NCBI GenBank assembly: GCA_022496805.1
Contig: CM040107.1
Coordinates: 8,266,501-8,330,500 of the forward strand
Direction: 5' to 3'
DNA from: Pohlia nutans
Taxonomy: Eukaryota > Streptophyta > Bryopsida > Bryales > Mniaceae
DNA length: 64,000 nt
Below, in pieces: positions 3,501 through 62,508 of this stretch. A program made the translations under genes and the position numbers. The notes under the pieces are model-generated. The model worked only from the letters and a program-made list of their open reading frames with translations. It had not been told where the DNA came from and ran no database searches. Position 1 is the first letter of the stretch. Each line of letters starts with the position of its first letter.

Positions 3501-5004
3501 TTTTTCAATAGATTTATCTTCCCTTACCACCCTTAACCTAAAATCTGTTTCAAATGGGATATTTGCACACATATTGCAAGTTAGACCAACCCAAGGTTCA
3601 TTACTCATAGACACACGAAGGCAACTCTGATGTCTAAATGTTCCATTGATTTTTACACATTTACCATCCACCGTAATAACCTCTTTCAACCAAGGTTCAA
3701 CATACCAACTCTACTTTATAGGATTTGTATCAAACAACAAACCCTCTACTTTATAGGATTTCCCGGCATAGACTACGAATGGACCCCTAAAACCCCAACA
3801 CATTAAAGTTTTGCATTCAGATTGACTCATGGAATGGGAAAAACTTACCTCGGGATGGTCTGCTACATGGCCGAAGAATGCATGCAACTGCTTTTGGCTT
3901 GATTGAGAGTTGTCTCCTAAAGACTTTGTTGGTCTCCCCCTCTTGCCAGACCTCAAGGCACTTTTTCCCAATCTAGCAACCTCCAACACCTTCTCAGCAT
4001 GTCTACTCCCTCCAACATGGTTCCTCAAAATGGCTTCCAAGTTTTTTTTCGGTGGGCACAAGCTAAAGATGTCATTGCAAGTAACACACTTTGATTTCCA
4101 CCAAAAGCTCTTCAATTCAGTAGTTTGGGGATCTCCTCCAATAACTTCAAAAGTCTTTTTGGTAGGATCAAAAGTCTTTTTGGCTATCATTGACAGCATT
4201 CAATATGTCTACACCTTCCAACACCAACTGCCTATGATCAATTGAGGTAAGAATGACAGTTTTCTTTCCTTTTGCAATTGATTGTGGGTGATTGCACCAA
4301 TCTAAACCCTTCCTCAAGCACCAACTTCTGATGTGTTGATTACTCATTATGTGACTTTTTTTGAAATTGGAAAAGAGATTCGAAATTCTCTCCTTTGTAT
4401 GCTGCCCATCAATCCCACCAAAGTCCTTCTTGCACTCTCGACAATAGAGAACCACAACACCTTTTCCATAGCAATCGTACGACTTGAGGTCCCATTCATG
4501 ATCTTCTAAAGAGACATCCTTCAATGCTTTGCGCAATTTCACTTCTCCCTCCATGTACATTGCCATAACCTCACTTGACACAATTTGTGACTGCAGCAGA
4601 CATTCTTCACTTGAATCTATAGAGATTTCATGGTTTCCAACAATCTCAACATTGAGAGGTTGTGACACCATGCCCTCAACTTCATTCCTCTCAATTGTGT
4701 CGATGCAGTGGTATTCACCTCCAAGACGTTGGCGTTTACAAGCCAAATCTTCAACTTCCTCATTGAGGGCACGGATCATGAAAACCTTATCCTCAAGGTC
4801 ATTAAGGGACTCAAGGCTAGTTGCCACTCTACAACACTCATCTGCATCCCAATACTGAAATTCATACTGTAAAACCTTTTTTTCTTCTAGGCGCACTCTT
4901 AGGTCAGCTAAGGATTCTCCATCTTCCCCCTTCATAGTTCCAATGCACTTTGGAGATGCTCCTTCATCAGTGAGTGTATACACCTTGATCTTCTTCATTC
5001 CCAT
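555..5004 (-). pseudogene. zinc-finger DDE transposase, P-element/THAP9-like fold (broken)
   Basis: Large minus-strand frame from ATG at 5004 to TGA at 555. It is read with one frameshift near 4168-4199, beside a duplicated AAAAGTCTTTTTGG, and three in-frame TAG codons at 3713, 2624 and 2258; no TAA or TGA interrupts it. Order seen: an N-terminal region; a BED-like finger (YCREC ... SHIMSNQH); a second CX2C...HX5H finger (CVTC ... NHVGGSRH); a KRGRPTK AT-hook; then the presumed RNase H-fold core with first acid in ILAEDETKV and second in HASDGDSRRR. Downstream SDSCEFFFSKIGG resembles the last catalytic acid region of P-element/THAP9 transposases (D/E followed by FFS and GG). A second RGRP AT-hook lies near the C-terminus. 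Such proteins bind transposon ends and cut and join DNA. The superfamily is my inference; hAT or Kolobok-like relatives are alternatives. No TIRs were found, so the element edges are unknown. Confidence 0.55.
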
Positions 5005-5126
5005 GCCAAACTATAACCCTAATTTCAGACCTTACAAACCCCAAAAATAACTCGTAAGCATTCACATGATTTACGTATGTAATGGATGTAAGACTATAAA
5101 ACAAGTTGACAAGAAAACAATCAAAA

Positions 5127-25219: not shown

Positions 25220-25316
25220 TTGATTACTCAATGTGGTAAGTAATTTACTGGTCACTGCTTTCTTAAGGACTCAAGAAAGCAGTGACCGGTAAATTACTTA
25301 CCACATTGATTATCAA
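25220..25316. repeat. templated-insertion palindrome at integrase deletion
   Basis: Two ~43-bp arms face each other across an 8-bp centre (AAGGACTC). Each arm is a mosaic of two nearby integrase pieces: CTTGATAATCAATGTGG (as at 25,771-25,787) fused to the stretch found at 25,591-25,620. The palindrome sits exactly where integrase sequence is missing. This looks like filler DNA made by template switching during double-strand-break repair. Confidence 0.8.
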
Positions 25317-25782
25317 GTAAGAAGTGCTTCATAAGGGCGTAAATAACCTTGTTGTTGACATGTACGCCTTGGTCGCAAACAAAATGAAGTGGACAACCAA
25401 ACCGGGTGAGGATGTTATCATACAGGAATTTAGCCGTCTCCTTAGCGGTGTTGTCACGGAGTGCAACTGCTTCTACCCATTTGGTGGCGTAGTCCGTGGC
25501 CACTAAGATGTATCGGTTGCCGGTGACTGTCCGTTTGAGGGGTCCTACAAAATCCAGTCCCCATTTCATAAAAGGTTCCATCGGTAGGATGGTAAGTAAT
25601 TTACCGGTCACTGCTTTCTTGAAACCTCCTACACGTTGGCATTCGTCGCAGCTCCGACAGTATTCAAAAACGTCTTTATGTAGAGATGGCCACGAGTAAC
25701 CGGCGTCGAGAATTTTCCGAGTGGTGATCTCGGTGGAAAAATGTCCTCCTGAGTTACCGTGGTGAAGCTCCTTGATAATCAA
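25294..25782 (-). pseudogene. Gypsy-1 integrase (truncated)
   Basis: The N-terminal HHCC zinc site is visible (ELHHGNSGGH ... YCRSCDEC), followed by the core with first Asp in VATDYAT and second in FVCDQGVHV. The catalytic Glu region (GLAESTN in the sister element) is deleted: at about 25,316 the frame runs into the palindromic filler and stops. Integrase inserts the cDNA into chromosomes; this copy cannot work. Two stops (TAA, TAG) separate it from RNase H upstream. Confidence 0.85.
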
Positions 25783-25872
25783 TGTGGTCTGTTTGCCGGA
25801 TATGACCTTCTATAAAGAGAAATTTTTGCTCTGTCGATACAAGGTGCCATCGACTAATTGAAATGGGAGGGC

Positions 25873-30742: not shown

Positions 30743-30748
30743 TGAACA

Positions 30749-31751
30749 ATGTTCGTAGACGAGACACCAATTCAAGAGAAGCTGCAATTCATGGACATTG
30801 CCCATTGGAATCACAATGAGGAGGATCGACTCGACCATATCAACGTCCGTACCTCTAGCCACCCCAAGATGTTGAAGCTGAATGCGAATTCGAGCCCTAG
30901 TCTCAAAGCCAGCGCCGAATCCCTGTTCAAGGAATTCATCGACATCTTTGCCTTCTCTTATGAAGATCTGCGATGTATACCGGAACACATAGCGACTCAT
31001 CGGATCGAGCTCGACCCGACCATCTTGCCTAGTTACCAGGCAAGATACCACATGAACCCGAACTATGCACAAGCCGTGAAGGACGACTTGGAACGGCTTC
31101 TAAAAGCAGGATTCATCGCGCCAGCTGACCAGGCTACATGGCTGTCCCTAATAGTCGTGGTTCCCAAAAAGAATGGGAAACTACGGATATGCGTAGATTT
31201 CCGTCGACTTAATGCAGCAACTAAGAAAGACCCGTACCTCCTTCCATTCATGGACGAGGTACTCGACGCAGTCATAGGCTATGAAGCCTACTCCTTCATC
31301 GACTGTTTTTCAGGCTACCACCAGGTACTGATCCACCCGACCGACCGCCCCAAAACAGCCTTCATCACCGAGTGGAGGCGCGTATGTATGGGTCGTGATG
31401 CCGTTCGGATTGAAGAACGCCCCGCCTACGTACCAGCGCATCGTCAACCAGATCTTCAAAGAGTACCTGGGCGACTTCATGAAGCTATTCCTAGACCATT
31501 TCAGTGTCTACAGCGACATCGACTCCCACCTACCGAAGCTCAGACTAATCTTCGACCGATGTCGACAGTACGGGGTAAGCCTTAACCTAGAAAAGTGTAT
31601 CTTCTATGTCCCTTCTGGTGTAATTTTGGGCTACATTGTAGGACGGGAAGGCAAGTTTCCGGATCCAAAGAAGATCCAGGCCCTAGTCGACATGCCACCA
31701 CCGAAGGACGTCAAAGCCATTCAGACGTTCAACGGACTAGCCCAGTTCAAC
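30749..31751 (+). pseudogene. Gypsy-2 reverse transcriptase, mutated active site
   Basis: Motifs in order: VVVPKKNGKLRICVDFRRLN, YSFIDCFSGYHQV (first catalytic Asp), a frameshift near 31,380, MPFGLKNAPPTYQRIVNQIF, then FMKLFLDHFSVYSD. The expected FLDD is FLDH: the second metal-binding Asp is His, which should kill polymerisation. A TGA at 31,752 replaces the Arg of FNRCFI, as expected from CpG decay of CGA. Confidence 0.9.
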
Positions 31752-31754
31752 TGA

Positions 31755-32557
31755 TGCTTCATCAAAAATTATGCTGCCATCATGGAACCCATCACCAAGT
31801 TGACCAAGAAATGCGTACCGATCGACTGGACACCGGCGTGCACGACAGCATACCAGACCATCAAGGATCGGTACCAGACTGCACCAATCCTGATCGGAGT
31901 CGACTAGGCACCAATCCTGATCGGAGTCGAGTCGACTTCCACATACACACAGACGCATCCAACATTGCAGTCGGGGCGATTCTAGCACAGAACCGGACCG
32001 GCAACATCGATCAACCAATAGCCTACGCTTCCCGACTACTCAACAAAGCAGAGAAGAACTATACAACAACCGAGAAGGTAGCCCTCGCAATGGTGTTCGC
32101 CATCAACAAATTCCGGCATTACCTCCTCGGTAATAAGTTTGTCTTCTATGTCGACCACCTGGCGCTCCAGTACTTGATTAACAAACCCCAAGTCTCGGGT
32201 CGACTGGCACGCTGGCTACTACTGTTTCTTGAATTCGACTTCACTGAGGTTTATAAACCAGGAAAAATGCATGGAGTAGCCGACGCACTATCAAGAAATG
32301 AAGGGGCCGAGCCAGCAATTGGCATCCCCGACCTAACAGTCGACGCGCAGCTCTTTTACACCGAACCCGACAGGCTACACTCGATAGTCGACTACTTGAC
32401 TTCCGGGACTTTTCCAGCGCATATGACGAAGGAGGCTCGCAAGCGAATAGCTCACAAAGCCATCCCATACCAAGTACTCGACGGCCAACTGTACCGACTC
32501 GGCAAGGACCACCAGCTCCGACAAGTCCTGACCGGTAGTCAGCCTAAAACAATCCTC
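31755..32557 (+). pseudogene. Gypsy-2 RNase H
   Basis: Contains DFHIHTDASNIAVGAILAQN, TTTEKVALAMVFAINKFRHY, FYVDHLALQYL and GVADALSRN, with the acids intact. Before it, a 27-bp tandem duplication (units starting at 31,881 and 31,908) and an in-frame TAG disrupt the connection. The frame ends at TAA TAA (32,558-32,563), inside what is coding in other gypsy elements. Confidence 0.88.
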
Positions 32558-38648: not shown

Positions 38649-40285
38649 TCAGTGTGCGCGTAGTTTGTTTTGGATGGCTTTTTTAACATCCTCATCCGAT
38701 AGAAGTGGACAACGATGTCCCGGATGTTCAAGTGATCCACATACATTGCATGGGTAGTGTTGTACCGGGGTTATACTACGAGAAGTACGGAGGTTCTCGG
38801 TACTTACCGGAGTTGGTGCTGGCTGAGTTTGAATCTGATGGACGGAAGCCGAATCGGTTTTCTTCCCGTAGTCGCTGGCCGGGTTGCGGTAACACGTCCC
38901 CCATTTATGGCCTATACAACCGCAGCCGGTACACTTCAAGTTACGTCGGAGGTTGTCTTCGGTACTAGTCGAGGGAAGGTTCGGTATCCGCGATTTGGGT
39001 AGGCCTTCCTCTGCGGTGCGTGCCGAGTCCACTGCTTCTCGAAAATGTTTGTCGTTGAAGTCCTACCTTGGCTACTTGCAGATATTCCAATAAGCTAGCG
39101 CGAAAATTGCTCAACATAAACATATCATCCGGAGGTACTTTTAGATTTTCCGCTAGTTGTTGGGGACGTTTGGCGTAATCATCGACAGATTCCTTCGGTT
39201 GCTGATTGATTGTACGAAATTGGATGAACGTTTGGTCGTCCGTTTTGATGGTTCGGTAGCGTCTTTTGAATGCGGTAAATACCTCCTGCAATGTATTAGT
39301 AGGATGTATCCGTCTATGGTATGCAAACCAATTCGACTCTATCTCGGTGAGAGAATTACCGAATAAATCCAATTGGACCATGGTTTCCATTTCGCCATTT
39401 AATCTAGTAGCAGATTCAAACTTACGGCAATGTATCTCGGGGCACTTACCGGTTTTGTACTTAGGATACGGTACTGCTTTTCGAGCGGTCGAGGTAGGGC
39501 GTCGACCTGCGGGTTGAACACTTGGGTTGCCGACAAGTCGGTAGGTTGGGGTTGGTACTCCGGTAGCCATAATGCGGCGCGGTTGGGGATAGTTATATAG
39601 ACAGGAAATAGAAGGGTGGTCGGTATGGCCACAGAACGTACAAAACCAAAGAGGAGGTCTAGGACGAACCTGGTGGTGGTGATGTGGAGGAGGATATCCA
39701 AAAAATTGTTGTTGTACCGGGTATTGGTTCCTGGAATCGGTTGTGGGCGCACCGTGTGATGCATTGATGGGGCACGTCCTTGATCTTGTCGAAACTGGCG
39801 TAAACGTAAATTGGGCAGTTGTAACCGCGACGCAGCTAAATCGAGGTCGAATTGAGGGGTCGGTTCTAGGGCTACGAGAAGTTTTTGATCCGTTGCATCT
39901 TCTTGCGGTAGTTGTTGGAGTCGGTCTTGGATGGCCGAGGACTGTAAAATGCCTGGGCACGAAACCGTTCGAATTCTTCGTCGGTGATCTGTAAGTCCTC
40001 TCCGGTAGCTGCAGGGTTGTGGAGTACCGAGTCGGAAGATGGCCTCTGCCAAGTGGATGAGTGCGGATGTCGTGCAGTTTGGAGTTCTCGCGAGGTCGGT
40101 AATTCATCCTGCGTGAGTACAGGTTGAGGCCGTTGTGTCGGATGAGTGGCTGTTGAGGGAGCTTGGAACATCGGTGACAGTAGCAAATCCTCTACGCTCC
40201 GGTGCATGCGAGTGTTGGAAATCGTGAGAGCCTCGAGGTCGAACTCGGGCGGTGGTCCTGCAGATCTAGTGTGGCGCCTGGCCAT
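38649..40285 (-). pseudogene. Gypsy-1 gag with three CCHC knuckles
   Basis: ATG at 40,285 (MARRHTRSAG). A Pro/Gln/His-rich N-terminal third contains an early knuckle FCTFCGHTDHPSISC. The capsid region follows (DLFGNSLTEIESNWFAYHRR, FTAFKRRYRTIK, SVDDYAKRPQQLAENL), then two C-terminal knuckles CTGCGCIGHKWGTC and CNVCGSLEHPGHRC. The frame changes at least three times, and a TGA at 38,651 interrupts before the protease. Gag packages the RNA. A knuckle ahead of the capsid domain is unusual for this family as I know it. Confidence 0.75.
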
Positions 40286-42894: not shown

Positions 42895-43695
42895 CTAGCC
42901 CGTCCACGTCCAAAAACCTTGAATTGAAAGGCAAAAAAAATTGCAACCCGCCCCAAAACCGGTGATTTTAAAATCATCCCGTCCATAGAAAGGTTGAAAA
43001 AAAAAACAACCCGTCCCAAAACCGGTTGCAAATTGAAAATACCTATCCCGTAATGTTTAGAAAAATTAAAATAAAATAAAATAAAAAACAAAAAAACAAA
43101 GAAAAAATAGCCGCTGCTAGGCCGAGGCTGCAGCCGGACCGCAGCCGGCCTGTGAGCACTGCAATATGTGAGAAGGGTTTTTCTAAACAAAACCTCATCA
43201 AAAGTCATCTACGTACTAGCTTGAAGTTGGAGACTTTAGATGCTTTGATGCGCATTTCTTGTGCAAATATTCCAGTTAAAAACATCAATTGGAATGCAGT
43301 GATGCTTGTTTGGAGAAACATGAAGGATAGGAAAATTCATCCAGTTGTTTGAAGGGTAAGTTCTTTATTTTGAAAATTTTGAACATGCTTATATAAAATA
43401 TTAATTATTCAATTTCTAAGTGTACCTTGAATTATAATCTTTGACATTGTGTTACAAAGGTTCTAAATATTGTAGTTAATGAATCATTGTATGCTATTGA
43501 AGATTAGTATTTGGATGACATTGTATGTTATTGAAGATTGGTATTTTGATTAGGTACTAGTGGTTTGACTCCATTAGGCTTACATTCACATGTCATTTAG
43601 AACCTGTCCAAAGTGAATTTAACCCGTCCAAAAACCGGTTCAGTTTTTTAGAACCCGTCCACTGGAAATGTTTTTTTTTTTTGAACATGTCCCTG
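42895..43695 (+). mobile_element. hAT relic with subterminal CCCGTCC clusters
   Basis: The word CCCGTCC (or CCCGCCC), often followed by AAAACCGGT, occurs about four times at 42,898-43,030 and three to four times at 43,600-43,690. The clusters flank a short hAT C-terminal coding piece. hAT elements carry clustered subterminal transposase-binding motifs. All copies here point the same way and no terminal inverted repeat was resolved, so the boundaries are approximate. Confidence 0.4.
43152..43352 (+). pseudogene. hAT transposase C-terminal dimerisation fragment
   Basis: Reads AICEKGFSKQNLIKSHLRTS followed by LKLETLDALMRIS, matching the hAT-C dimerisation region (E-R/K-GFS...IK...R..L..ETLDALMRI). 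The catalytic domain and zinc finger are absent. A Met start within it is incidental; the real protein would begin far upstream. Confidence 0.75.
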
Positions 43696-44239
43696 GACAT
43701 GTTAGGGACCTTGTTAAAAAAACGTGTTGGTCCCACACTACATGCTTGCCATCGGAGATAGGCCCACAGACTGCACTTTCCCACGGAATTCACACGGACA
43801 TAGGAGGGTTGGTCCTTGTATTTGTGTCCTCTTTCTTTTTTTGCAGTAAAGGGCTCTCCCCTATATGCGTCAAAAAAAAGAAAAAAAAAACTTGTGACTG
43901 GGATCAGAATTTCACATGAATAGCGGTATGTACTGAAGTAAATAAAAGTACAGAAATACCTTTTTTTTTTCTGGCACACATTGAAGAATCGATTGAATTT
44001 TGGCATAAACAATGGATTACCCTTTATTGCAAGATAAAACCAGAATACAAACCAACCCCACCGAGATGGGCTTGATCCATGCAATTGCAAGTAAGAATAA
44101 ATACATGCCACCATAGTAGGGAAGCCGATTGGCAACCTAAACCCAAAGACTAGTTAAAACTACAAGGGTTACAATCATGAAGGGCTCAAAATAGCATTGA
44201 CAGTGAGGACCTGTGACTATATTGTATTGAAAACTCAAA
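43696..44239. other. no supported gene
   Basis: Contains T- and A-runs (43,671; 43,875; 43,970) and the 3' flank of the dioxygenase gene. A 180-codon minus-strand frame is low-complexity and overlaps the hAT relic; not convincing. Confidence 0.4.
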
Positions 44240-45661
44240 CTACTTCTTAATTTTCTTCATTTCCAAACGTTCCAAAATTTCATCATAAAGACGTTTGTTT
44301 TTTTTGTCTTTGACTCTCCTGATCTCGTCTATTTCTTGTGTAACCCTTTCAAAAGAATCCAAGGTAGATTTTTTTGTAAGAAGAGCAGCTCCCATTTGGA
44401 TAAATCCACTATTTGCGACGGTTCCATGGCTAACGTTTTTTGAATCTAGTAATATAATGGATCCTGCTTTAGGTTTGATGTAATAGCCGTAGTCTTGAAG
44501 ACAAAACTCTCCACCTCTTTTGGGTATTCCATACAGATTTTTTGCAAAACCGTATTAGAAATAATGGATCAAATATTAGTAAAGTATTGTTCAGATCATA
44601 ATAAGATAAGTATAATCAGATTTACAATTGCCCTAAACAATGTTTATAAAATAATGAAGTTACGTATTTTCATTTTATTAAAACTTATAAAATTGATTTC
44701 ATCATTGAAATTTTAAAATACTCAAACACGAGATACAAAAATTACCTTTAGTAAACCACATAATAAATCCCATATTTTTGTCATCTCTATTTGTGTGCGG
44801 TTGCGTCCAATAATTTTTTGTGATACCCAAATGGGAAAACGGGGTATCTGCAAGTCTTCCATACTTTCTTCGAATCGTTGTAGGATACAACTTTTCTAGA
44901 GAGTCTGTCCAAGACAGAAACGCCGGTTGTAAGAATTTGAAAACTTCAACAGCAAACATCTCTCCAAGCTTGTGTATTTCTTCGTCACTTGGTTTTATAT
45001 CATTGTTTTTTCTCACTGATTGGGCATACCTATAGACATTGTTGTGAAATAAATAAATAAGATAATCATAGCAATAATCAAATGCAACTAACAATAATAA
45101 TATACTTAATTTTTATCAAACATAAGACGAGTTCTTTTCCTCACTATATAAAGTAGATTATAATGTAATTAGGGTGAAACGTACTTACACAACAGGCTTG
45201 TCTATAAACGTGTCAAGTCTCCACCCAACCATGACCATGTCTCCCCCAATTTTTCGTTGTCCTCGTTCAACAAAACCTCCATGCTCGTATATGAAATCTA
45301 GAAGATTGTACAACTTTTGACACGTCTGACTTGGAAAAAAACTATCGACGTATATGTCTAATATTTTTTCTCCTTCCATGAGAACGCATGACTCTACCAA
45401 TTCAGTCATGTTGGAAGTATTAAGTTTACGATCCTGATTGTGTAATTTTTGACATCTTATTACTTTGTTAATGACCTTAGGAAAAGATATCCCTAGAGCT
45501 CGTAACTTTTGTATTCCTTCATCAATGGTATTTTTGTTACCATGGTTATCTTTATCACTACAACGGAGTTTGTGTTTTCTACCTCTCTCGTGTGCTCTCT
45601 ATTGCTCTTCTGAATTGAAATTTTTGTTACAGGGACGACATATGTGTGTGATCGGATGCAT
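44240..45661 (-). CDS. 2OG-Fe(II) dioxygenase, TET/JBP-like, with C2H2 finger
   Basis: Three exons join in phase with canonical borders: 45661-45189 (donor GTAAGT), 45029-44746 (acceptor CTATAG, donor GTAATT) and 44514-44240. The product has ~343 residues. A C2H2 finger lies at residues 8-30 (CRPC...H...H, CX2CX12HX5H). The oxygenase core shows NYWTQPHTNRDDKNMGFIMW (H236, D240/241), a spliced KGGEFCLQDYGYYIKPKAGS and LLDSKNVSHGT (second His, ~282). H-x-N-x2-D followed by GGEF...PKAGS...HG resembles fungal-type TET/JBP dioxygenases, which oxidise 5-methyl bases in DNA. The usual 2OG-binding Arg after HG is not evident. Codon 21, inside the finger, is TAG. The next in-frame ATG (45,409) would give a finger-less ~259-residue enzyme. 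It ends at TAG, with TGA 17 codons on. Other 2OG oxygenase families remain possible. Confidence 0.65.
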
Positions 45662-46580
45662 TTTTTCCTATTATGTAGATTACTTAATTATAAAACTTTA
45701 TCAGAGGCTCTCAGAAAGTAGATATATAGCTATATTCAAAGACGCATGAATGAATGAATTATATAAAGCTGCCTACTGAATATTTGTCTACATTCTTTTA
45801 CTTTTTTAGTTACTTGATTCTATTTTTTTAACATTTAATTTGTTCTAAAAATACTTACATTGAACCTAAGTTTTTAATTTAATATTCAATTTGTATATGA
45901 CTTTTACTATTTTATTGTTAGATTATATAAAACAAGTACATTTTCATTATTACCTCTTTCTGGATTGTGCTTACGTTGTAATTTTTTTATATCTCATGTT
46001 TAGTTAATGTTTGGACAATTTAGTTAATGTGTTTGACTTTTATTTAATTTTGGTTGCTCTAGAAACAATTACATCAATTATAGTTCTTAATTGACCACTA
46101 TGATTTTATTTACTTTTAGTTATTTAGTTATGTTTATTTATATTCTTAGTTTCATTTATGACCATTGCTTAAATTTGGTTGTTCTAAAAACATTCGTTTT
46201 TAATTTTAGATTTCAATTGACAATTATATTTTTGCTGTATTTTTTAATTGACCATTGTATTTTTATTATTATTTTTATTATGTTAAATTTTCAGTGTATT
46301 GATTGACTTATATGTTATTTTGGTTGTTCTAAAACAAATCACATGAAATTTTAGTTTTTAATCGACCACTTTATTTTCATTCACAAATTTTACATGACTC
46401 TTATTATTTTAGGTTCGTGTTTATTAAAATTGTCGAACCTCGTTTATTCTTAAACGGGCAGTTAGGGTTGGTAGGGCAGTAAAGGATAGCCCAGGCGCCA
46501 TAAACGGGAGAAATATCGTTTATTATAGCCTCTTTATTTATTTGGAGGGAGTGGTGCTCTCGCGCGTACCTTAAGTGTTC
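45662..46580. repeat. AT-rich region with degenerate direct repeats
   Basis: The phrase TTGGTTGTTCTAAAAAC followed by AATTGACCA recurs in degenerate form near 45,840, 46,052, 46,178 and 46,322. It is probably a decayed transposon tail and possibly includes the dioxygenase promoter. No open frame is convincing. Confidence 0.5.
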
Positions 46581-47128
46581 GCTACAGAACCTAGGAATGG
46601 CGGCGGACCGGACAGAAGACCGGATGTGACACCGGATGTCGGAGGACGGGCCTCTGCTGGGCCCGGCCACGATCCGGGATTTGAATTGGGCCGCCTTAAA
46701 TTGGGCGGCTCACTATTCATTCCTCCACGGTTCCTCTTGCCCTTCGCGTGCACCATTTTTCACAGTTCCGGAGAGCGCTAGGGTTTCCATTTTGCACCCG
46801 GAGGTAGAGAGCAGTGAGCGACCGACTTGTGAGAATTTTGAGCACCCGGGAGTACGACAAATTGAGCGTCCGGGGAAAACAGTAGCGCGAGGTTAGAATT
46901 GGGAAGGGGCGAGCATCCGGACTGTGAAGGCCACCATTTCCGGCGAGGTTTGCGCATCCGGGAAGAGAGGTGCGGGGCCTCCGGGTGGTCAGGCGCATAC
47001 CACGGAAGCGGAAGGGGAAGCATCCGGAGAAAGAAGTGCGTGGTTTGAAGGAGAGAGAGAGAGCGCACCCGGAGAAGAAGCTGCGCCGTTTCCAAAGGAG
47101 TGAGAGAGCGCGTCCGGAGTCCGCAGCC

Positions 47129-49848
47129 ATGGCGCGCAGGGAGACCGGGTCCAAAATCCCGGAGAAGAGGATTCTTTCTGACATCCCACAGCATCCGGAA
47201 GACTTCGAGGAGTTGCTCAAGGACCTCGAACAGATCGAGTGTTTGGGGTTGTTTGGGAAGGTGTGGGATGTCTAGGACGCCCAGATGTTGGAAGAAATTG
47301 AGGGCGGAGCTATGGAGCCTGCCTTCCGGGCAACGATCCGGGCAAAGTACGGGAATTGGACCCAGAGGCATTGGCGAGCCGTGTACGACTTCCCGGACAC
47401 GAGTGAGGACCTGGAACCGGGCAGCAAGGGCGACACGGATTGGGTGAAGGCGCGCTTCACCCACCTCTCGGACCACGATGGATTCAAGGTAGCGGATTGC
47501 GTATATCCCCGGGAGCAATGTCTACTCGAGTACGTGGTGCCCATCCTCAACCCAGAGAAGCCCACCACCCTCACGATACACTGGCAAGGGGAATCTTGTC
47601 CGCACTCATCCAGAAGAAGAAGATCAACTGGGCATACCTAGTGCACAAGAACACTCAGAAGTGGACCCGGAACCTCGACAACAACACTAGTAGAAATCTT
47701 GTCTTATGTGACAAGTCTTTAATGACTCAATGTCGGGAATGACAAGTCCGTAATGACACAAAGTCCCTCTATGTGTCATTACGGACATGTCATTCCCGAC
47801 ATTGAGTCATTAAAGACTTGTCACATAAGACAAGATTTCTACTAGTGCAAGAAGGGGTGCCCGTTGGCCCCATTTCTCTACCATTTGTATGAGAAAGAGG
47901 GGTGCATCACGGAGGAGGAGAGGAAGAGATTAGACATTCCTCCCATCTCGGGACTGAGGAGCCCGGCCAAGAAGAAGATGGCTCTTCCAGGAGGAGGAGC
48001 AAGAACCAGTCGACCCAGATCCTCGCTGAGACCGGAAGAAAGAAGGATAGCTCCACCGGCAGTTCAACTAGACAAGAGCAGCATCCGGGAGGAGCGCAGT
48101 AATGAGGGAGAAGACCCGTTGCGTCCAGGTGGGGCCAGCGCTAACTCGAAGCTGAGAACAAAGTGGCGAGAAGACTGCCCGGGGAGAGGCCACCCGGGTG
48201 GTGCCAAGCCGCGATAGGAGGAGCGGCACGAGAGGAGAAAGGACCCGGAGTAAGGCCGACCGGGTGGGGCAAGACCTCAGCAGGAGCTGAGAACAAAGCG
48301 AAGGGAGGATCCAGACGAGGAAGAGGAGAAGGATTCCCCACAGCCGAAGCTGACCCGGAAGAAGCTGGTGAGGGATTGGGAGGCGGCTCCTCAACCGGAG
48401 GTAGGTAGTTCCTCCCAAGCGCAACCTCGGGTGGATCCGGTAGTGGAGTCCAGGCCAGCGGAGGAGAAAGGGCCTTTTCCAACACAGACCCAGGAGCAAC
48501 CTGTGGAGGGGTCCGGACTAATGGAGGATGATCCTACCCCGGAGGCTCTACAAGAACAGACGGCAGATAGGAACCAACCGGAGGAAGGAGGACCGTCACA
48601 GGTGCAACTTCAGGGCCTGAAGAAGAAGTTGGTCCTCACGGCCGAGGAGGAAGAAGAGCCGGAAGGACCGCAGACCACACCCCAGAAGAAGAAGGGACTG
48701 GCCTAAAGGAAGACAACTCCCCGGAACAAGCGTCCCAAGGAGGCAAGGGACGACGGGGAGGAAACCGGAGACGAGGTTGACCGGGAACAGGGACCGCCAG
48801 TGGGAGAAGAACCGGTCTGGGAGGCAGGTCCATCCGGAGGAACACAGAAGGAACGGGAGGCCCCGCTCCGGGTGGAGAACATGCTCCCGCAGACCCGGAT
48901 AGCGCTGGACATGGTGACGGAGTAGTACACTCCGATTTTCGCCGCGCTCCAGGAAACAAGTATTCTCCTCCAGACAGACGACGCCCTAAAGTATCCGGCG
49001 CGGATCCGGAAGCTCCAGAGGAATTTCTCCGGAGCCGGGAGAAGGAGAACGAGTTGGCCGGACAATTACAGGGTGTCCGGGAGGAAGAGCAAAAATCAGC
49101 CACTCTTTTGAGGGGTTAGGAGGAGGAGCTGCAACAGAAGGTGACATACATCGCAAAGATGGAGGCACACGTTCAAAGGAACGAGTTGCAGATCCGGGAA
49201 CAGGAGGATACCATCCGGAGGATAGGGGAGACGAGCCGACAGTGCGTCACCAAGCTGTCGGGGCTGTTCCAACCGGATGGGGAGGCACAAATGAAGGCCC
49301 GGTTGTATGACGAGCGGGTGGGCCAGCCGGGACTAGAGGGAGCAGCTTGGATGAAGAATGTGGTCCGGGAGTACTCGGACAAGATAGAGGCTTACCTCGT
49401 GGAATTCCGGGTATTGGCAGAGTGCATGAGGGAGAGCTCTTCCGACGAGGAATCGGATAATGAGGAGGCCGCCAACCAGGGTGAGAGGGTAGGTTCCGGG
49501 TGTGGGCTGCAGAGTGTGTTTAATATATCTGCAAATGCTCCTCAAGAGGGTGAGATCGACCGGTTGATGAGGAGGGGAAGATCAACTCTGGAGCACACCT
49601 CCCGGACCGCGCTAGATGTGGAACCAATCCACATGGTCAGATCCGCCGGAGTAAGTCCAGAGGAGGTCCGGGATCTGAGCGAGAATATGGAGGCAATGGA
49701 TGTCCAACCGGACAGGGCGGAGAAGCATCAGGTGGGACCACAGGTGGAACAGCCGGTGGCGCACGGAATGCGAGGAGATCGGCCGGCGGATCCGATCGTG
49801 GTGGGGAGCCCGGAAGATGAGGAGGAGCAGCCAAGGGAGGACCTGTAG
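47129..49848 (+). pseudogene. coiled-coil ORF interrupted by a MITE
   Basis: Starts MARRETGSKIPEKRILSDIP. An in-frame TAG at 47,273 precedes DAQMLEEIEGG, then comes a globular stretch (KARFTHLSDHDGFKVADCVY, REQCLLEYVVPILNPEKPTT), a frame change near 47,580, and KKKINWAYLVHKNTQKWTRN. A 163-bp CACTA MITE then interrupts; removing it with one CAA copy restores the frame into CPLAPFLYHLYEKEGCITEE. A long charged linker follows with further shifts, a TAA at 48,704 and TAGs at 48,923 and 49,117. The C-terminal part (49,120-49,848) is a coiled coil (EEELQQKVTYIAKMEAHVQR) with an acidic tail ending in TAG. No known domain. Confidence 0.5.
47685..47847. mobile_element. palindromic CACTA MITE, 163 bp
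   Basis: Begins CACTAGTAGAAATCTTGTC and ends with its exact complement. The ~75-bp arms differ by one base until near the short centre, and CAA flanks both sides (47,682-47,684 and 47,848-47,850), the 3-bp duplication typical of CACTA elements. The near-perfect arms and clean duplication suggest recent insertion. Confidence 0.93.
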
Positions 49849-51983
49849 CTGCCCGGGACCACCGGGGGTCCGGAATCAGTGGCACGGACTTAGTGGATCC
49901 GACCACTTAAAATAGGACTTTTTCAGTAGGTAGGCTAGAAGACTTTTTAATGTAAATGACTTCTAGGGTTTTAATGTTAGTGGCGGTTTAGGATAGGAAT
50001 TGAGCCGTGGGGGAAGCTCCCTGGATTTCCGGATCCCGGGAATGTAGGATCTGAGGATCTCTCGGGTCCGGGCTTTGGGTTGGCTTTTTATCAAGGGATG
50101 TTCTTCATTCCTTGGGTCTTTTGTGTACCTTTGTTCCGTGTAAATGAGTAGAAACATATATTCCTTGCACAAACTTTGTGTGTGTGTATGTGCATATGTG
50201 TATTTGCTTGTGTTATTGCCGGAACAGTGGCGCAACTAGTCCCTTGGTGACCGGATGGATTAGCTAGGTTCGGACGTGAAGTCAGTAAAGAGACCGGATA
50301 GGAGATTCGGAAGAATTAAGAGTGTTTGAATGTGGGGTTTCTTGTGTCCGATTGCACGTGGAAACCCGGGTTAATGGCTGGAAAAGCAGGAGGGGGTACT
50401 CCGGTTTTCTCAAAACTCCTGGACGAGTAGTTCGGTAGAGGTTCCAGCATCCGGCCAGATCTTGCAACTATAGAGTGAGGAAAAGCGAGAGTAAAACGGA
50501 TCTTGAGGTATTCAATTTCTTCCGGACACCCCGGTTACTGTCGATTCCGGTTAACAAGTCGTTGTAGTATTTTGGGGATAAGGGGGAAGCCAGGTTGCGC
50601 TTGTGTGACCGGCTGTGGGTTTGGGATAAGCCCATAGCTGAAGAGTATCCCGGGAAGTACTCGGACTAGGGAGTTGAGTTTGGATATCCGGAAAGTAGTG
50701 AATCCCCTATCATGGAAATCAGTAGGGGAGGGTGTGATTTTAGATCCAGCATCCTTAAAAAAGCAAATGGAGAACCCTTTGAGGGAAAACACAGGTTAAT
50801 GGGAAACCGGATTTAGTAGCAGGGGTTAGACCGGGTAGAGTAGGGTTGGTTAAGTTTCCAACCCAGACAGAAACCGGATCTAGCCATAACGGGGTCAGTC
50901 AGTAGAGAAGATCCGGTTTTTGTACAGAAAAAGGGAGTTATTTGGTGACCGGGAGAGAGCAGTCACCAATCCGAGTCAGCCTCCGGAAACTTCCCACTTC
51001 ACAGAGTCTCCGCAGAACAATAACTCGGAAATCACCTCTACGAGCATTCTTAATACAAAAAAGTGCGCTCTAGGGGAGTATCCGGTACCACGTGCTACCA
51101 CAAAAATAGATACATTTCTATTATTACTACTTTGTGGATTCAGCGATATATAATTTGTATTTGATTGCAAGTCATTTTCTTTTTCTTCTTCCCCGTGAGA
51201 AATTTATACGTTGCTATAAAGATCATTACTCTAAGAAAATGTTTGTATTCCCTATCAATGTATCATCAATATATTTTTGTAAGATGTAAACATATTAATA
51301 ATTATTCTATAGACATTATATTATTTCAATATACATCTTCTTAAAATATTTGCAATATATTTGATTCAGTCTTAGCACTTCCATTGCTAAATTATTCCTA
51401 TTAATTCCAATTCATTCCTCCAAAATTCACACTAATGTCAATAATTGGTGTACTAAGAAACCTATGAACACATGTTTCTTCATCCTCTGAGTAAATCCAT
51501 CCACGGAACTGAGTGATGCTGTCAGAAACGCCACCGTCACGCGTCCAATACCCATGGAAGGTAAGAATCTCAAGTCTTGGCACAAGACTCGGACCTCAAG
51601 TTCATTGCTTTGGTAAGAGGATCGGAGCACAGACGTGTGGGTTGGTCCCCGATCCGAAGACTCCTCCTCACCCCCTTCCGTGCACCATTTTCGAAAGCCA
51701 CTGTCGGTACTCAATTTTTTTGTTTTTTTAATTGATTGCAACACAACGAAGGAATTCAAGCGTGAGTGAGTGGTGATAGTTACTAACTCACTTTGTACAA
51801 GTTAGTTGCCTAGAGCGGTAATTCCGTTCTTGTCGTCGCCTAAGTAGCACAAGATATCTTCCCCTGATTTAGGGTTTCGTTTTAACTTTGCAGAGGTAGA
51901 AATCAATCGATTCATAGATGCGTGAGCTACAACGACGTGAGATTGTTGCCACAGTAGTTATGGGCTGTTTCCGCTTCAGCAAG
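49849..51983. other. non-coding, CCGGA-rich then AT-rich
   Basis: 49.85-50.95 kb keeps the CCGGA-rich composition of the preceding element without a credible frame and may be its LTR or 3' UTR; no second copy exists in the window to prove this. 51.1-51.9 kb is AT-rich and may hold the promoter of the next gene. Confidence 0.35.
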
Positions 51984-54900
51984 ATGGCAGAGGAGAATCC
52001 CTACGAGTTGGTGTGGTTGAAGAAAATTCGGGAATTGAACAACAAATTAAATGAGGTATGCCCTGGCGAAAACGTGTAACTTTTTGCACTAATTGAAATT
52101 TTTTACAGTTACTTCTGCATGTTTGTGCACAAGCAAAGTAAAAACCCATGATAGCAATGAATTGTGTCACCTCTATATTAGTTGCACCCGCTTTTCTCTG
52201 CCGCCGCCGTCTGCAAACAACACGCGAGTCCCCTGAATCATATTGTAGGTAAATGTCTCCGCATTGTCATTTGTCAATTTTTGTTCCTTTCGTTTCTATC
52301 ATTTTTTCCCTCTCTGTTCATCTGCTCTCTCCCTTTCTATAGGCCTGGCCGGTCCTGGCTGGGTCCTGGTTGTATTTGTACCCGGGTAAATGTCAACGGA
52401 AAAATACCCCTTTATTTCTGTGCAAAGAAAGAAGAAAAAAAAAACACACACACAGACACTGCATCACTGTAACTAGCAATACAGTGCCGGTACTTGTCGT
52501 AGATAGAAGGTACACAGTGAATACCACCCTGTACAGTCGCGAAGCCGTTCCGATGGACAACGCGCGTGGACTGAACAAGGAGTTAGTCCACACATAATGA
52601 ACGGGGGGTTCGGCGTTTTTATGGATCTGACAATGCAGCTCTAGCATTGATAGTGCTTGCAATATAGTTAGCTGTACTATTCGGATACACATGAATCTGA
52701 CCGTGCCAGTCGCATTGGACATTTGAGGTGTTACAGAAGCGCCGCCTAGTTGCGCCATTAAGGCAACCGATGGACCCACGATCAACACGATTGATCCTGC
52801 CTCATTATTGATTTAAGCATGGATCGACGAGCCTTTGATCAGTCAGGTCAGAGCTATTGTGAATGCAAGTCGCAAGAATAGTCAGATGTTGTACAACATC
52901 GTATGCTGTATTGTAAAGTAACCTGGTTGTTTACGTAATTCTACGGTACTTGGAGCATCTAGCTAGTGCTTGTTGTGTCTGAGGCGCCTTCAACCCCGTG
53001 CAGCACTTGAGAGTTCTTCTGGTTTTTTAGTTCCAAGTTCTGAGCTCAGACCCTAAATCACGTTGTCAGCCTAATGCAAAGAAGCTTAGTCATGGATGCC
53101 CAGTATGATGCATCGCACATGGACGACGTGGACATAGTGAGAAGCACGCAGGTCGTGGAGCACCCCGCACAAGGCTTAAGACGTGAGCTCGATCGCCGGG
53201 ACCAGCCCAGGTTTGAGCAAACACAGGTACCTTTCTCAGCCCTCATGCTTAACTCCAAAGTGACAGGATATATCCAGCCAATTTTTTTGCATATGGCACC
53301 TTCAATATATCCAAGTCGGTTTTGTCTTATCTGAGAACATAAAACAAGATCGAACCGTATAATGTTGAAGCTAGCTTGTAGAAGCGTCCGTCTGCAAAAT
53401 TCCAACAATTAATTTTGATGTTTGAACATTTTTCACTTTGTACAAAGCAAGTGTTGTAAGTAATGTGAAAATAAATGTACATTTAAGAACTAGGAGGATA
53501 GAAATTGACTTATGAGATTGTGTGCAAAGAGTTCAAATTTCGGTGAAAACCAATAAAACAAAGTCTAGAACATAAGGAGTCACTTTGAAGTGAAAACAAC
53601 CGAAAATCACGAATAATGTGCTATACAGGGAACTCCGACGGTAGGTCTGTTTTTTGGGTGAGATGTGGCTGTTTCTGGAAGTAGACACTTACTTGGATAT
53701 AGAATGCAATTCCTGCAAATTGGATTGGTGCAATATATTTAGCACATGTATTATGATGTGCTAAATAGAAATTAGATTATTTAACCCTTAAACCGATTGT
53801 TTAATTTGTTGTGTAGCGTCGAAATTCCACTGAACATATTAGGGTTCAATGGTGATATCAACAATCTCGCCGGTAATTACCCTAAAACTCGGGGAGGTCA
53901 CTCTTTGCATCATTTGAGTATCACGTGTGAACAAAGGGTATTTAAAAGCACCCTAAAATTTAAAAATAATGTTTACTATAATTAGTAATATTTTAAGAAT
54001 ATTCTCATTTTTATTCTTGTGATGAATTGTGAACATCCTATATTAATGTAAATCATTTATAAAAATTATCTTCAAAGATTTATTTGGACCCTATCTTTGT
54101 TCGCACGTTGTTACATAATATTTGGAAGTGACCTCCCCGGGCCCTAAACTCTCAGAATTCAAAACAACATAAATGAAAGAGATTTATTTGGATGATAATG
54201 TGCCACCTATCAATGAAAATCACATTTCATTGTCACCAAAAGCTTGATTTCCTGTTTCACCATTTGAACCCTAAACGTATTGTATTTGCATTTGCAAAAA
54301 CCACGAATCACACTTTCTGTCCTCAATGGCAGTTTGGGGTTAAAAGAGGCTGAATTAGGCTGAATTTGGTGCGATGAAAACTAATTTGATGAAAACTAAT
54401 GTGTGTAGATGGCCGGAATGCCATTTGGGCCGAGCTACAGTCAACCATCTATGGGGGTGAATTGCAAAGTTCCACACAGGTCTTTGGCAGTGTCCGCCCT
54501 CGCAACCCAAGCATGTACAATCTATGCATTGGCACATCTAGCACAACGCCTCCCAACTTCCGGAGCCATTTGCTCTACTCCTTACCTGCAACGGGATTTT
54601 GTCTTGGCGGGTCAGATCCCAATCACACAGGATATCACGGAATGCAGAACATGAGCTTGCAATACGGACGTGTGGAGGCTACGTTCCCTAACGAAGAGGC
54701 AGATCGAGGACCGGGCAGCCAATTTCACAGCAACACCATCTTACAAAGTGACAACTCCAGTAAGTCACCTCCTTCTGACATGTCACAAAGAAAGTTACTG
54801 CGCGTAGAAGAACGTGACTATTTAAAAGAAGTCAAGAGTGCCATTGCGGAAGGTAGAGTACCGCAAGTTCATCTTGAACAAAACAACAGTGGTGAAATTG

Positions 54901-56913
54901 TGAAATTCAAATCACAGTTCCTAAACGCTGTGAAATTGGCCACCCTTGCAATCTTTCCTAATGCTTTCATACATTTCAAATATCCTTCAACGATGCATGA
55001 GTTTATGGTAGAAGTTAGAAGGCAATTTGTAATAGAGAAGCTTCTCCCAGAAGGCATGATAGAGGGCTTTCTACAGTGTCTGTACAAGAGAAATAGAGCA
55101 TTGTATCGTAAGCATTGGTCACGATATGGGGATCAGAATAAGCCTGACGATTGTGCACCGGCGGCGTGGCTGGAAATGGTAGAGTATTGGAACTCAAGGG
55201 AGGGGAGCAAGGAGAACGAAAGGAACAAGCAAAATTCTTTGGCAAGGAAAGGAGCTACGGTATGTCCATTCGATGAAATACCCCAAAGTAATAAGTTTTG
55301 AATGCTTGCATCATGGAATGCAAACATAAAACAGACGTGAATCAAGATAACTTTCGTGAGGCACACTTTCCTGTTCAAAAAGCACTGCATGGTCCATAAC
55401 ACAAGCACATTGTATCACCCAGGTATAAACCATGAGCTCCTTCGAATATTGTTTGGGCAAAAAATGCTTCGATCATTGAGAAAATAAATTGTCTATGAGA
55501 AAGGTAGCAGGGTCCAAACGTAAGCTACAACACGTTTGTCGATAAACGAATTGAGCAGAACATTTGCTGAATATGCCAGAACTTTGTACTCGCTTCAATA
55601 ACTTCTCACAATAATGTCTTAGTATCAATGCAAGCAAGTTTAAGTAGAGAATTTGAGCGTGGTTGTCCAACACTGTGACGTACGGTGCAACACTAAGGCT
55701 TGAACATTGTGGAACTGCATGTGTGACTGTACGTAGCAGTGCTAGCAAGTGGATCGACAGGTGGGATTGCCGCACTAAATCGTGGGGACAGAACGCATGA
55801 AAGCAGAGTAGGGGATCAGTCGCTCGCACCGGCAAACACAAGGACAAACCATGTACGAACTGTTCTGCTTATGTGATTGATTAATGTTGGAATGTGTCGA
55901 TGCTGTATTTGTAGGCTGAAAATTCCTCAAACCATCGCTCCATGTCCGTGGCGTAATGAACATGGTAATTGTGGTTCGTTGGTACTTGTGAATTTCAAAG
56001 CCACAAATGCGTGTTTACATGTTCACACGAGAGTCAATAAGGATACGTCCCATATAGATTTTCCCACCGTACGTGATGGAAACGGCCCTCTATTTGCTCT
56101 CTACAGGCCAGAATCTCTCAGTCCGAACCAGACGACGACTCGCTTGACGCGAAAGAATTCACAACTCCAATGGACAATGACACAAAGGGATCTTGGAAGT
56201 GGTTACCCATGAACGACATCAGCAACAAGCTTCACGCCATGGTGGACGAATTTGTTTCTAATCTGTTGTCTAAGTGCGACTCTTTAGTGACCAAGGTAAC
56301 TGACAAAAATCATGAACTCGGCGAAGTGAATGTGGGACTCACAGCAGCCACGGCGCGAAGACCAATTAGCCGCACCCCAAGCGATATCTTGCAGGGATTG
56401 CAGAAACCTAGGGACGTCCAGTCTACATTTTGCACAGAAGTAGATGGATCATTGCAAAGTAGACAGAGACGACAAGGTTTGGATGCTCGTTCGATGAGAA
56501 CATCAAGTGGAGGTGAATGTATGGCCGTATTCTCGCTTGAAGACTGGTCACACCCTCAGTGAAGTCATTCATTTTATGATTGACATTGTAATAGTGAGCA
56601 ACAATATATTTTTCAAGTCCCTTATTGCCCACAGAGTGATGGTTATAATCAACCCAAGCACGACTTTTAATGTGAATTCTAAAAAATGTACGAAGTAGTT
56701 GTCTAGCACAACTTACAGAAACTGCAGGATTAAGGCACCGAAAGCTTGTACATAATTAGCAAAAAATAACGCATGTGGTCACAATATGGTGCAGGTCTAA
56801 ACGATTTGAAGGGCAAGAGTGCGTGGGACGACATGAGCCACACGACTGCAAGAGACCCTGCGAACACCCCATGGAAGAGACCATCACAAAGGAGGATGCA
56901 ACTCCGCCCATAA
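51984..56913 (+). pseudogene. PF03004-like (plant En/Spm-associated) transposon protein gene
   Basis: Possible exon 1 51984-52055 (MAEENPYELVWLKKIRELNN, donor GTATGC). Then about 53070-53226 (frame starting MQRSLVMDAQYD), 54409-55259 (donor GTATGT), 56107-56512 and 56795-56913, ending in TAA. The last three join in phase; the link from exon 1 is out of phase, so a part is missing or exon 1 belongs elsewhere. Near 54,460 a frameshift is needed. The core reads FLQCLYKRNRALYRKHWSRY ... CAPAAWLEMVEYWNS ... KENERNKQNSLARKGAT. This is the pattern of PF03004 (Transposase_24) proteins: a basic helix, W in the middle, then serNk.nR before a conserved splice. These accompany plant CACTA/En-Spm-like transposons. 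A MITE lies in the intron at 53,888. The family call rests on pattern memory. Confidence 0.45.
53888..54141. mobile_element. TIR MITE, 254 bp, intronic
   Basis: Ends CTCGGGGAGGTCACT and AGTGACCTCCCCGGG are inverted copies, and similarity continues about 50 bp (CACGTGTGAACAAAG against CTTTGTTCGCACGTTG). Flanks are CCCTAAAA on the left and CCCTAAAC on the right, a probable 7-8-bp target duplication as in hAT or MULE elements. No coding capacity. Confidence 0.65.
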
Positions 56914-62221: not shown

Positions 62222-62290
62222 AAAAGGTGGTCAAAAGTACCTCAATAGGAAAACAACTGCGGTACTTTTCGACCATGTTTTCTACTAGTG
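62222..62290. mobile_element. possible CACTA-type right terminus
   Basis: GTTTTCTACTAGTG at 62,277-62,290 is the complement of CACTAGTAGAAAAC, the end sequence of the MITE at 47,685. Just inside, GGTCAAAAGTACC and GGTACTTTTCGACC form a subterminal inverted pair. No matching left end was found, so it may be a stray end or the right end of an element holding the 52-59 kb genes. Confidence 0.35.
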
Positions 62291-62508
62291 ATAGAAACAT
62301 CCTTGTACATATTCTGGGACGTCCTTGGACATCATCCTGGACATCTACACATCCTGCTGGACATAACCATGTCTTCATGGACATCCCTTGCGTCCAAGAA
62401 AAAAATAGGAGGACACCCAAACACATAGGGGAACTAATTACAGCAAAGATTGCAGGCTTGAAAGCAGGAACACAGATAAGACCTACTCACAGCAAACATC
62501 GGATGTAC

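What the first reader, a model, noticed from the sequence alone, without database searches (positions are those of the whole stretch)
44240..45661. TET/JBP-like 2OG dioxygenase gene with a C2H2 finger
Three exons that are unremarkable one by one join in phase into an Fe(II)/2-oxoglutarate oxygenase core (PHTNRDD, GGEF...PKAGS, SHGT) with an N-terminal C2H2 finger. The H-x-N-x2-D arrangement is closer to fungal TET/JBP dioxygenases than to plant AlkB or JmjC enzymes, as I know them. TET/JBP genes travel with transposons in fungi and some algae; finding one in a green-plant-like, transposon-filled region would suggest an enzymatic route to oxidised methylcytosine.
Basis: partly seen in the sequence, partly recalled or inferred. 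Interest (0 to 1): 0.78.

Follow-up and report, generated by a model that had tools for sequence, protein, structure and literature searches.

The report
TET-like enzyme carried by plant transposons
The window holds a broken copy of a zinc-finger/TET-like enzyme gene that, in intact copies elsewhere in this plant genome, rides inside CACTA jumping genes, which suggests that these elements carry their own tool against DNA-methylation silencing.

Summary
The three exons are real (minus strand) and encode a C2H2 finger plus a TET/JBP-like 2OG oxygenase core; the closest solved structure by sequence is the Chlamydomonas 5mC enzyme CMD1 (six-member profile, E=2.4e-8). But this copy is broken: TGG->TAG in the finger, the intron-2 acceptor AG lost, and the iron-binding Asp of HxD changed to Asn (HTN), the change that abolishes CMD1 activity in print. 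The window copy is one of about 78 clusters of such matches on 21 contigs of a 698-Mb green-plant genome (probably a moss). Four of eight copies modelled are intact with HxD (352 aa, GT-AG introns at the same positions). Two of these sit in ~24.6-kb CACTA elements with CACTAGTAGAAA ends and 3-bp target duplications; the one scanned has plant TNP2 transposase exons. Five of seven close relatives of that transposase, but 1 of 119 remoter matches, lie within 20 kb of a TET-like cluster. dN/dS between clades is 0.09-0.25. The window copy lies in the same kind of element: its 5' terminus at 62290 recurs beside sister copies. Most likely this is transposon-borne anti-silencing by 5mC oxidation, known from fungal transposons; my searches found no plant report. 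The chemistry is inferred.

The parts
45189..45661 (-). exon 1: C2H2 (zf-C2H2_jaz/zf-met) finger and N-terminal part of the core
   Evidence: same exon length (473) and donor GTAAGT in five modelled relatives
45599..45601 (-). in-frame TAG (codon 21) inside the finger; of 15 copies in which this codon was read 13 have Trp, 1 (C3:11319k) Leu, 1 (window) stop
44746..45029 (-). exon 2: holds the first iron-site motif
44789..44797 (-). HTN: HxD iron-binding motif with Asp changed to Asn (equivalent, by the alignment, of CMD1 D347N)
44542..44543 (-). lost acceptor of intron 2: AA where 14 of 18 copies read have AG; C22:3204k has AA too, two copies could not be scored
44240..44541 (-). exon 3 as in relatives (second iron His in SHGT); a cryptic in-frame acceptor would start it at 44514
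62279..62290 (-). CACTAGTAGAAA, 5' terminal inverted repeat of the CACTA-family element that holds the gene; the similarity of 14 genomic copies ends within 7 bases of 62290 (9 of them exactly there)
51103..55345 (-). upstream part of the element, shared in pieces with sister copies C23:912k, C23:3834k, C22:3204k, C23:12296k
46431..51102 (.). later TG..CA insertion into the element, 5-bp duplication AAAAT; C23:912k lacks it at exactly this site
43806..46430 (-). gene-bearing unit, 95.4% identical to C23:912k

Best explanation
The window gene is a decayed copy of a zinc-finger/TET-JBP-like oxygenase that is an accessory gene of CACTA (En/Spm) DNA transposons in this plant. Shown: the gene family, intact members, the place of two of them between the ends of CACTA elements that also carry TNP2 transposase exons, conservation of HxD..H, purifying selection, and the three lesions of the window copy. 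Inferred: in intact copies the finger helps dock the enzyme on element DNA (or chromatin) and the core oxidises 5-methylcytosine (or modifies it as CMD1 does with ascorbate), so that newly inserted or silenced elements lose methylation and can be transcribed and transposed; copies that fall silent then decay, as this one has.
For: Tet_JBP is matched by 6 of 6 members scanned; PF20515 'Tet-like' (4 of 6) is the only other 2OG family listed. The profile's only 2OG hit in the PDB is CMD1, E=2.4e-8, with H, D and second H aligned. Copies C4:6159k and C5:24066k: elements of about 24.6 and 24.7 kb, CACTAGTAGAAA ends, 3-bp duplications ctt and gtc; in the C4 element Transposase_21 9.1e-51, DUF4218 1.5e-34, DUF4216 1.9e-7. 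Of 127 matches to that transposase, 8 rows (7 places) have at least 60% identity and 5 of the 7 places have a TET-like cluster within 20 kb; of the other 119 rows 1 has. Intact 352-aa HxD products at C4:9898k, C5:24066k, C4:6159k, C16:23835k (4 of 8 modelled). dN/dS 0.09-0.25 for pairs with dS above 0.4 (13 of 18 copies compared). The window's element terminus at 62290 recurs at the expected place and orientation beside C23:3834k and C22:9388k. 19 of the 39 window-specific substitutions are C>T/G>A, 12 of these in CG or CHG context, in line with decay of a methylated copy.
Against: No activity, expression or methylation data. Where bits were shown, all members score below the curated Pfam cut-off. 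No homologue in 5.8 billion proteins (that search needs shared 5-residue words), so the family is known here from one genome. Two of the 7 close transposase places have no listed TET-like copy near. The C5 transposase is split between frames. The window's 3' terminus and any transposase remnant were not found. Next to C22:3204k the terminus is inverted. The closest copy shares HTN, so a probably inactive lineage was copied. The C>T/G>A share of the window is like that of its three sisters, so it does not set this copy apart. No structure was predicted.
Confidence: 0.62

Rival explanations
1. The enzyme acts on RNA, not DNA: a finger of the jaz/zf-met/U1-C type often binds double-stranded RNA or sits in splicing and ribosome factors, and the core would oxidise methylated bases in element RNA or small-RNA precursors.
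For: Finger matches zf-C2H2_jaz ('double-stranded RNA-binding') and, in the PDB, Bud20, ZFa, ZNF593 and U1-C.
Against: The core's only solved 2OG relative by sequence is a DNA 5mC enzyme; DNA methylation is what silences DNA transposons (established knowledge).
Confidence: 0.2
2. Passive cargo: a captured host or foreign gene carried along by CACTA elements without benefit to them.
For: Plant CACTA elements often carry captured gene pieces (recalled). Many matches carry stops.
Against: dN/dS 0.09-0.25 between clades, conserved introns and HxD in 16 of 18 copies; TET-like copies of different divergence (75-86%, about 42% and 32% identity to the window) keep company with the same transposase lineage.
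Confidence: 0.15
3. The HTN lineage (window, C23:912k) is not dead but a non-catalytic regulator, e.g. a competitor of active copies.
For: C23:912k keeps an intact 352-aa frame with HTN.
Against: The window copy also has a stop and a lost acceptor; only two copies of this kind were seen among 18 read.
Confidence: 0.05
4. A different 2OG family (AlkB, prolyl hydroxylase, JmjC) unrelated to TET/JBP.
For: Scores below the Pfam cut-offs.
Against: Only Tet_JBP and Tet-like PF20515 were listed among 2OG families at E<=10, E<=1 and E<=0.01, though the filters drop most weak matches; CMD1 is the only hit named as such an enzyme in the PDB.
Confidence: 0.05

Closest known systems
TET+ EnSpm/CACTA and other DNA transposons of fungi (Kojima 2025, PMC12730594; abstract and passages seen)
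   Same: A TET/JBP oxygenase gene inside complete DNA transposons, EnSpm with CAC..GTG ends and 3-bp target duplications among them; proposed escape from methylation silencing.
   Different: Fungal; in the text searched 'zinc finger', 'moss', 'algae' and 'Viridiplantae' occur 0 times and the 'plant' passages are about other elements. Here the carrier has plant-type TNP2 parts (DUF4216/DUF4218) and the protein an N-terminal C2H2 finger; relation to the fungal types PU/AG/PE was not tested.
CMD1, Chlamydomonas 5mC-modifying enzyme (PDB 7cy4; PMC7854593, passages seen)
   Same: Closest solved sequence; same HxD..H layout, and Asp at the place of D350, on which a passage discusses base contact.
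   Different: CMD1 uses ascorbate; the aligned part is the core only; co-substrate of this family unknown.
VANC of Arabidopsis VANDAL elements (PMC10398659, start of abstract in a listing) and maize Spm TnpA (recalled)
   Same: Plant DNA transposons that encode a protein against their own silencing.
   Different: VANCs are described there as sequence-specific; no oxygenase core is known to me in either.

Membership tests
TET/JBP 2OG dioxygenases | HxD..H iron triad | tested here: not met
   Window copy HTN..H. The family as a whole meets it: HxD in 16 of 18 window-type copies read; distant members L001-L003 HID, L034-L037 HQD.
TET/JBP 2OG dioxygenases | significant match to the Tet_JBP profile | tested here: inconclusive
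   E 1.1e-6 and 1.4e-6 for two window models, 1.9e-6 for L002, 6 of 6 members at E<=0.01, but bits below the curated cut-off 34.9 wherever bits were shown.
TET/JBP 2OG dioxygenases | double-stranded beta-helix fold | not tested
   No model made: the spliced protein is not contiguous in the DNA and loci from the genome search are not on the fold tool's list of admitted sources, so nothing was sent.
TET/JBP 2OG dioxygenases | oxidises 5-methylpyrimidine in nucleic acid | not testable with these tools
   needs an assay
CACTA/EnSpm transposon (elements at C4:6159k and C5:24066k) | CACTA terminal inverted repeats and 3-bp target duplication | tested here: met
   CACTAGTAGAAA..TTTCTACTAGT(G/A); ctt and gtc
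CACTA/EnSpm transposon (elements at C4:6159k and C5:24066k) | TNP2-type transposase | tested here: met
   C4 element: Transposase_21 9.1e-51 with DUF4218 and DUF4216. C5: 96-97% identical pieces, split between frames
CACTA/EnSpm transposon (window element) | terminal repeats at both ends | tested here: inconclusive
   5' TIR exact at 62279-62290 and shared boundary; 3' end not found, and the search meant for it did not complete
CACTA/EnSpm transposon (window element) | own transposase | tested here: not met
   tblastn of the C4 transposase against the window: none at E<=0.1; of the other one only short pieces at E 0.04-0.8; it would be a non-autonomous copy

The most novel reading that the evidence does not exclude
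A land plant, a group held to lack TET enzymes, harbours an old and still mobile arsenal of transposon-encoded 5mC-oxidising (or 5mC-modifying) enzymes: at least two deeply diverged clades (26-31% identity) sit in large repeated elements, one of them amplified so recently that copies on four contigs are over 99.4% identical across 10 kb, so oxidised or glycerylated cytosine may exist, locally, in plant DNA.
Probability: 0.45. Interest if true: 0.9.

Novelty: new variant of a known kind. Interest (0 to 1): 0.76.

Why it matters
[quoted passage not shown] Here a plant genome carries about 78 clusters of TET-like matches, at least four of them intact and two shown inside complete CACTA elements. 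If active, they would be a plant route to erase or rewrite 5mC that differs from the glycosylase route, and a sign that DNA transposons in plants and fungi converged on, or shared, an enzymatic weapon against silencing. It gives a direct test: clone the C4:9898k-type gene and measure modified cytosine.

Tried and rejected
Protein database searches with the spliced protein (703 candidates) and with a two-member alignment (4523 candidates) found nothing. A Tet_JBP search of the own genome found only three distant copies; the full family appeared with the protein query. The 23,995-bp element of the 399-aa type shows no TIR or target duplication; its transposase match is weak (PF02992 0.0097) and its spread could not be searched. 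TIR pattern counts in the window at up to 2 mismatches are no more than chance (8 against 5.3 expected); only the exact hits and the shared boundary carry weight. The outer side of 62290 is another repeat family whose copies mostly start at 62291-62293, as expected if the element had jumped into that repeat, but this was not shown. The probability 3.7e-11 treats copies of one element as independent and is only a guide; one search entered 33 of 127 rows, all 127. Iyer et al. 2014 and 2009 are not held; that Iyer 2014 mentions transfers of TET/JBP genes to Viridiplantae is recalled, and it bears on novelty. Literature searches for TET/JBP in plants, mosses, transposons or CACTA elements; no plant element of this kind appeared in the rows listed (2 to 20 per search), but most subscription papers are not held.

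Full report
What is in the window. On the minus strand three exons (45661-45189, 45029-44746, 44541 or 44514-44240) encode a C2H2 finger of the jaz/zf-met type and an oxygenase core. Pfam gives Tet_JBP at 1.4e-6, below its curated cut-off, and, if exon 3 starts where relatives start it, the 'Tet-like' family PF20515 improves from 0.0028 to 3.4e-5. The single sequence finds CMD1 in the PDB at E=0.46; a two-member profile at 1.3e-5 and a six-member profile at 2.4e-8. No other hit is named as a 2OG enzyme.

The copy is broken. Compared with relatives: TAG replaces TGG in the finger; the acceptor TTTTGCAG reads TTTTGCAA (C22:3204k has lost it too); the HxD Asp is Asn (C23:912k has it too). In the alignment to CMD1 the Asn faces the Asp of its HxD, named D347 in the paper, whose D347N mutant 'completely lost the activity' (PMC7854593, passage). 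In the coding sense all three are G to A. Of 39 substitutions unique to the window in a four-copy alignment, 19 are C>T or G>A, 8 in CG and 4 in CHG context; the other three copies show 19 of 38, 25 of 59 and 37 of 84, so the window does not stand out.

It is one of many. A search of the own genome (698 Mb, 332 contigs) with the core gave 170 exon matches at E<=0.001; the 150 listed fall into 78 clusters at 5 kb on 21 contigs (the tool under-counts repeats, and one gene or relic can be split). Eighteen window-type places were read: 16 HxD, 2 HxN. Of eight places modelled, five gave a 352-aa frame with GT-AG introns at the same positions (four HxD, one HTN), one gave an intact frame through another AG, one gave no model in my script, and the window is broken. 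Among 13 copies compared, pairs with dS above 0.4 have dN/dS 0.09-0.25 (simple NG86, stops skipped, decayed copies included), so the protein was under selection while it spread; close pairs have few changes and higher ratios (up to 1.33, C5:24066k against C4:6159k, on 13 changes).

The carrier. The surroundings of C4:6159k and C5:24066k match at 94-98%; the match ends at CACTAGTAGAAA on the left and TTTCTACTAGT on the right, 24,643 and 24,699 bp apart, with 3-bp duplications ctt and gtc. Upstream of the TET-like gene lie TNP2 exons, scanned in the C4 element: Transposase_21 9.1e-51, DUF4218 1.5e-34, DUF4216 1.9e-7, weak Transpos_assoc; in C5 the first long frame is split in two. Genome-wide, 127 matches to this transposase were listed. 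The seven places with at least 60% identity include five within 20 kb of a TET-like cluster (C4:6149k, C23:5410k, C22:6847k, C5:24074k, C2:27772k) and two without (C4:32549k, C6:42241k); of the other 119 rows one is that close (C13:17100k). At C23:5410k and C22:6847k gene and transposase have opposite orientations, unlike C4 and C5. CACTA transposases are abundant in this genome (1,152 first-look candidates, 150 scored), so nearness to any CACTA would mean little.

The window's own element. CACTAGTAGAAA stands at 62279-62290 on the gene's strand. A DNA query across that point gave 44 matches: the window itself, 14 whose similarity ends at 62290 to 62296 (nine exactly at 62290), one (C22:3213674) that ends earlier, and 28 on the outer side, which is another repeat. 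Two of the 14 lie at the expected side, distance and orientation of sister copies C23:3834k (8 kb) and C22:9388k (11 kb); the one beside C22:3204k is inverted. Between gene and terminus the window carries a later TG..CA insertion, 46431-51102, with AAAAT duplicated, absent at this site from C23:912k. No transposase remnant and no 3' terminus were found.

A second, older branch. Relatives at 26-31% identity have single-exon frames: L002 (409-codon frame, HID) and a type with 399-codon frames at seven places of 26% identity; the four fetched have HQD and are 99.4-99.8% identical over 10 kb. Two were extended: 23,995 bp are shared (C2), with a weak Tnp2-like gene downstream; no TIR or duplication was seen at the ends.

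Organism. 131 Chloroa_b-bind matches make it a green plant. An LHC protein's best PDB hits are 9vfj (a longer LHCI-2, source not known to me), then 7xqp and 8htu, which I recall as Physcomitrium; hence probably a moss.

How it most likely works. Fungal DNA transposons of 11 lineages, EnSpm among them, encode TET/JBP enzymes, thought to help escape methylation silencing (PMC12730594, abstract and passages). The same reading fits here: finger for docking, core for oxidising 5mC. Placement, conservation and selection are shown; substrate, chemistry, targeting and benefit are inferred. The window copy is a relic.

Noticed in passing
window 47685-47847: A 163-bp mini-CACTA with perfect CACTAGTAGAAA ends and CAA duplication; C23:912k (L045) shows the empty site.
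   Followed up: partly
L034-L041 (C2:50.05M, C6:15.0M and others): A 23,995-bp, 34% GC element with a 399-codon TET-like frame and weakly Tnp2-like exons, 99.4-99.8% identical between contigs, so recently mobile, but without recognisable terminal repeats.
   Followed up: partly
window 43083-43349: Possible relic of a hAT dimerisation region (PF05699 0.0064, below cut-off) just downstream of the gene.
   Followed up: no
window 25297-25809, 30746-32557, 38968-40191: Retrotransposon pieces (integrase, reverse transcriptase, RNase H, gag).
   Followed up: no
G000 contig pairs C1/C2, C7/C8, C11/C12, C15/C16: Light-harvesting genes recur at similar places on paired contigs, which suggests an old genome duplication.
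   Followed up: no
window 2625-5010: Three long open frames on the minus strand (362, 162 and 280 aa) without a Pfam family at E<=0.01.
   Followed up: no
L042-L044, upstream of the TET-like gene: A 2-3 kb array of repeats (Gln/Lys/Asn/Ser-rich frames) between transposase and TET-like gene in the CACTA elements, possibly the binding region for a silencing-countering protein.
   Followed up: no
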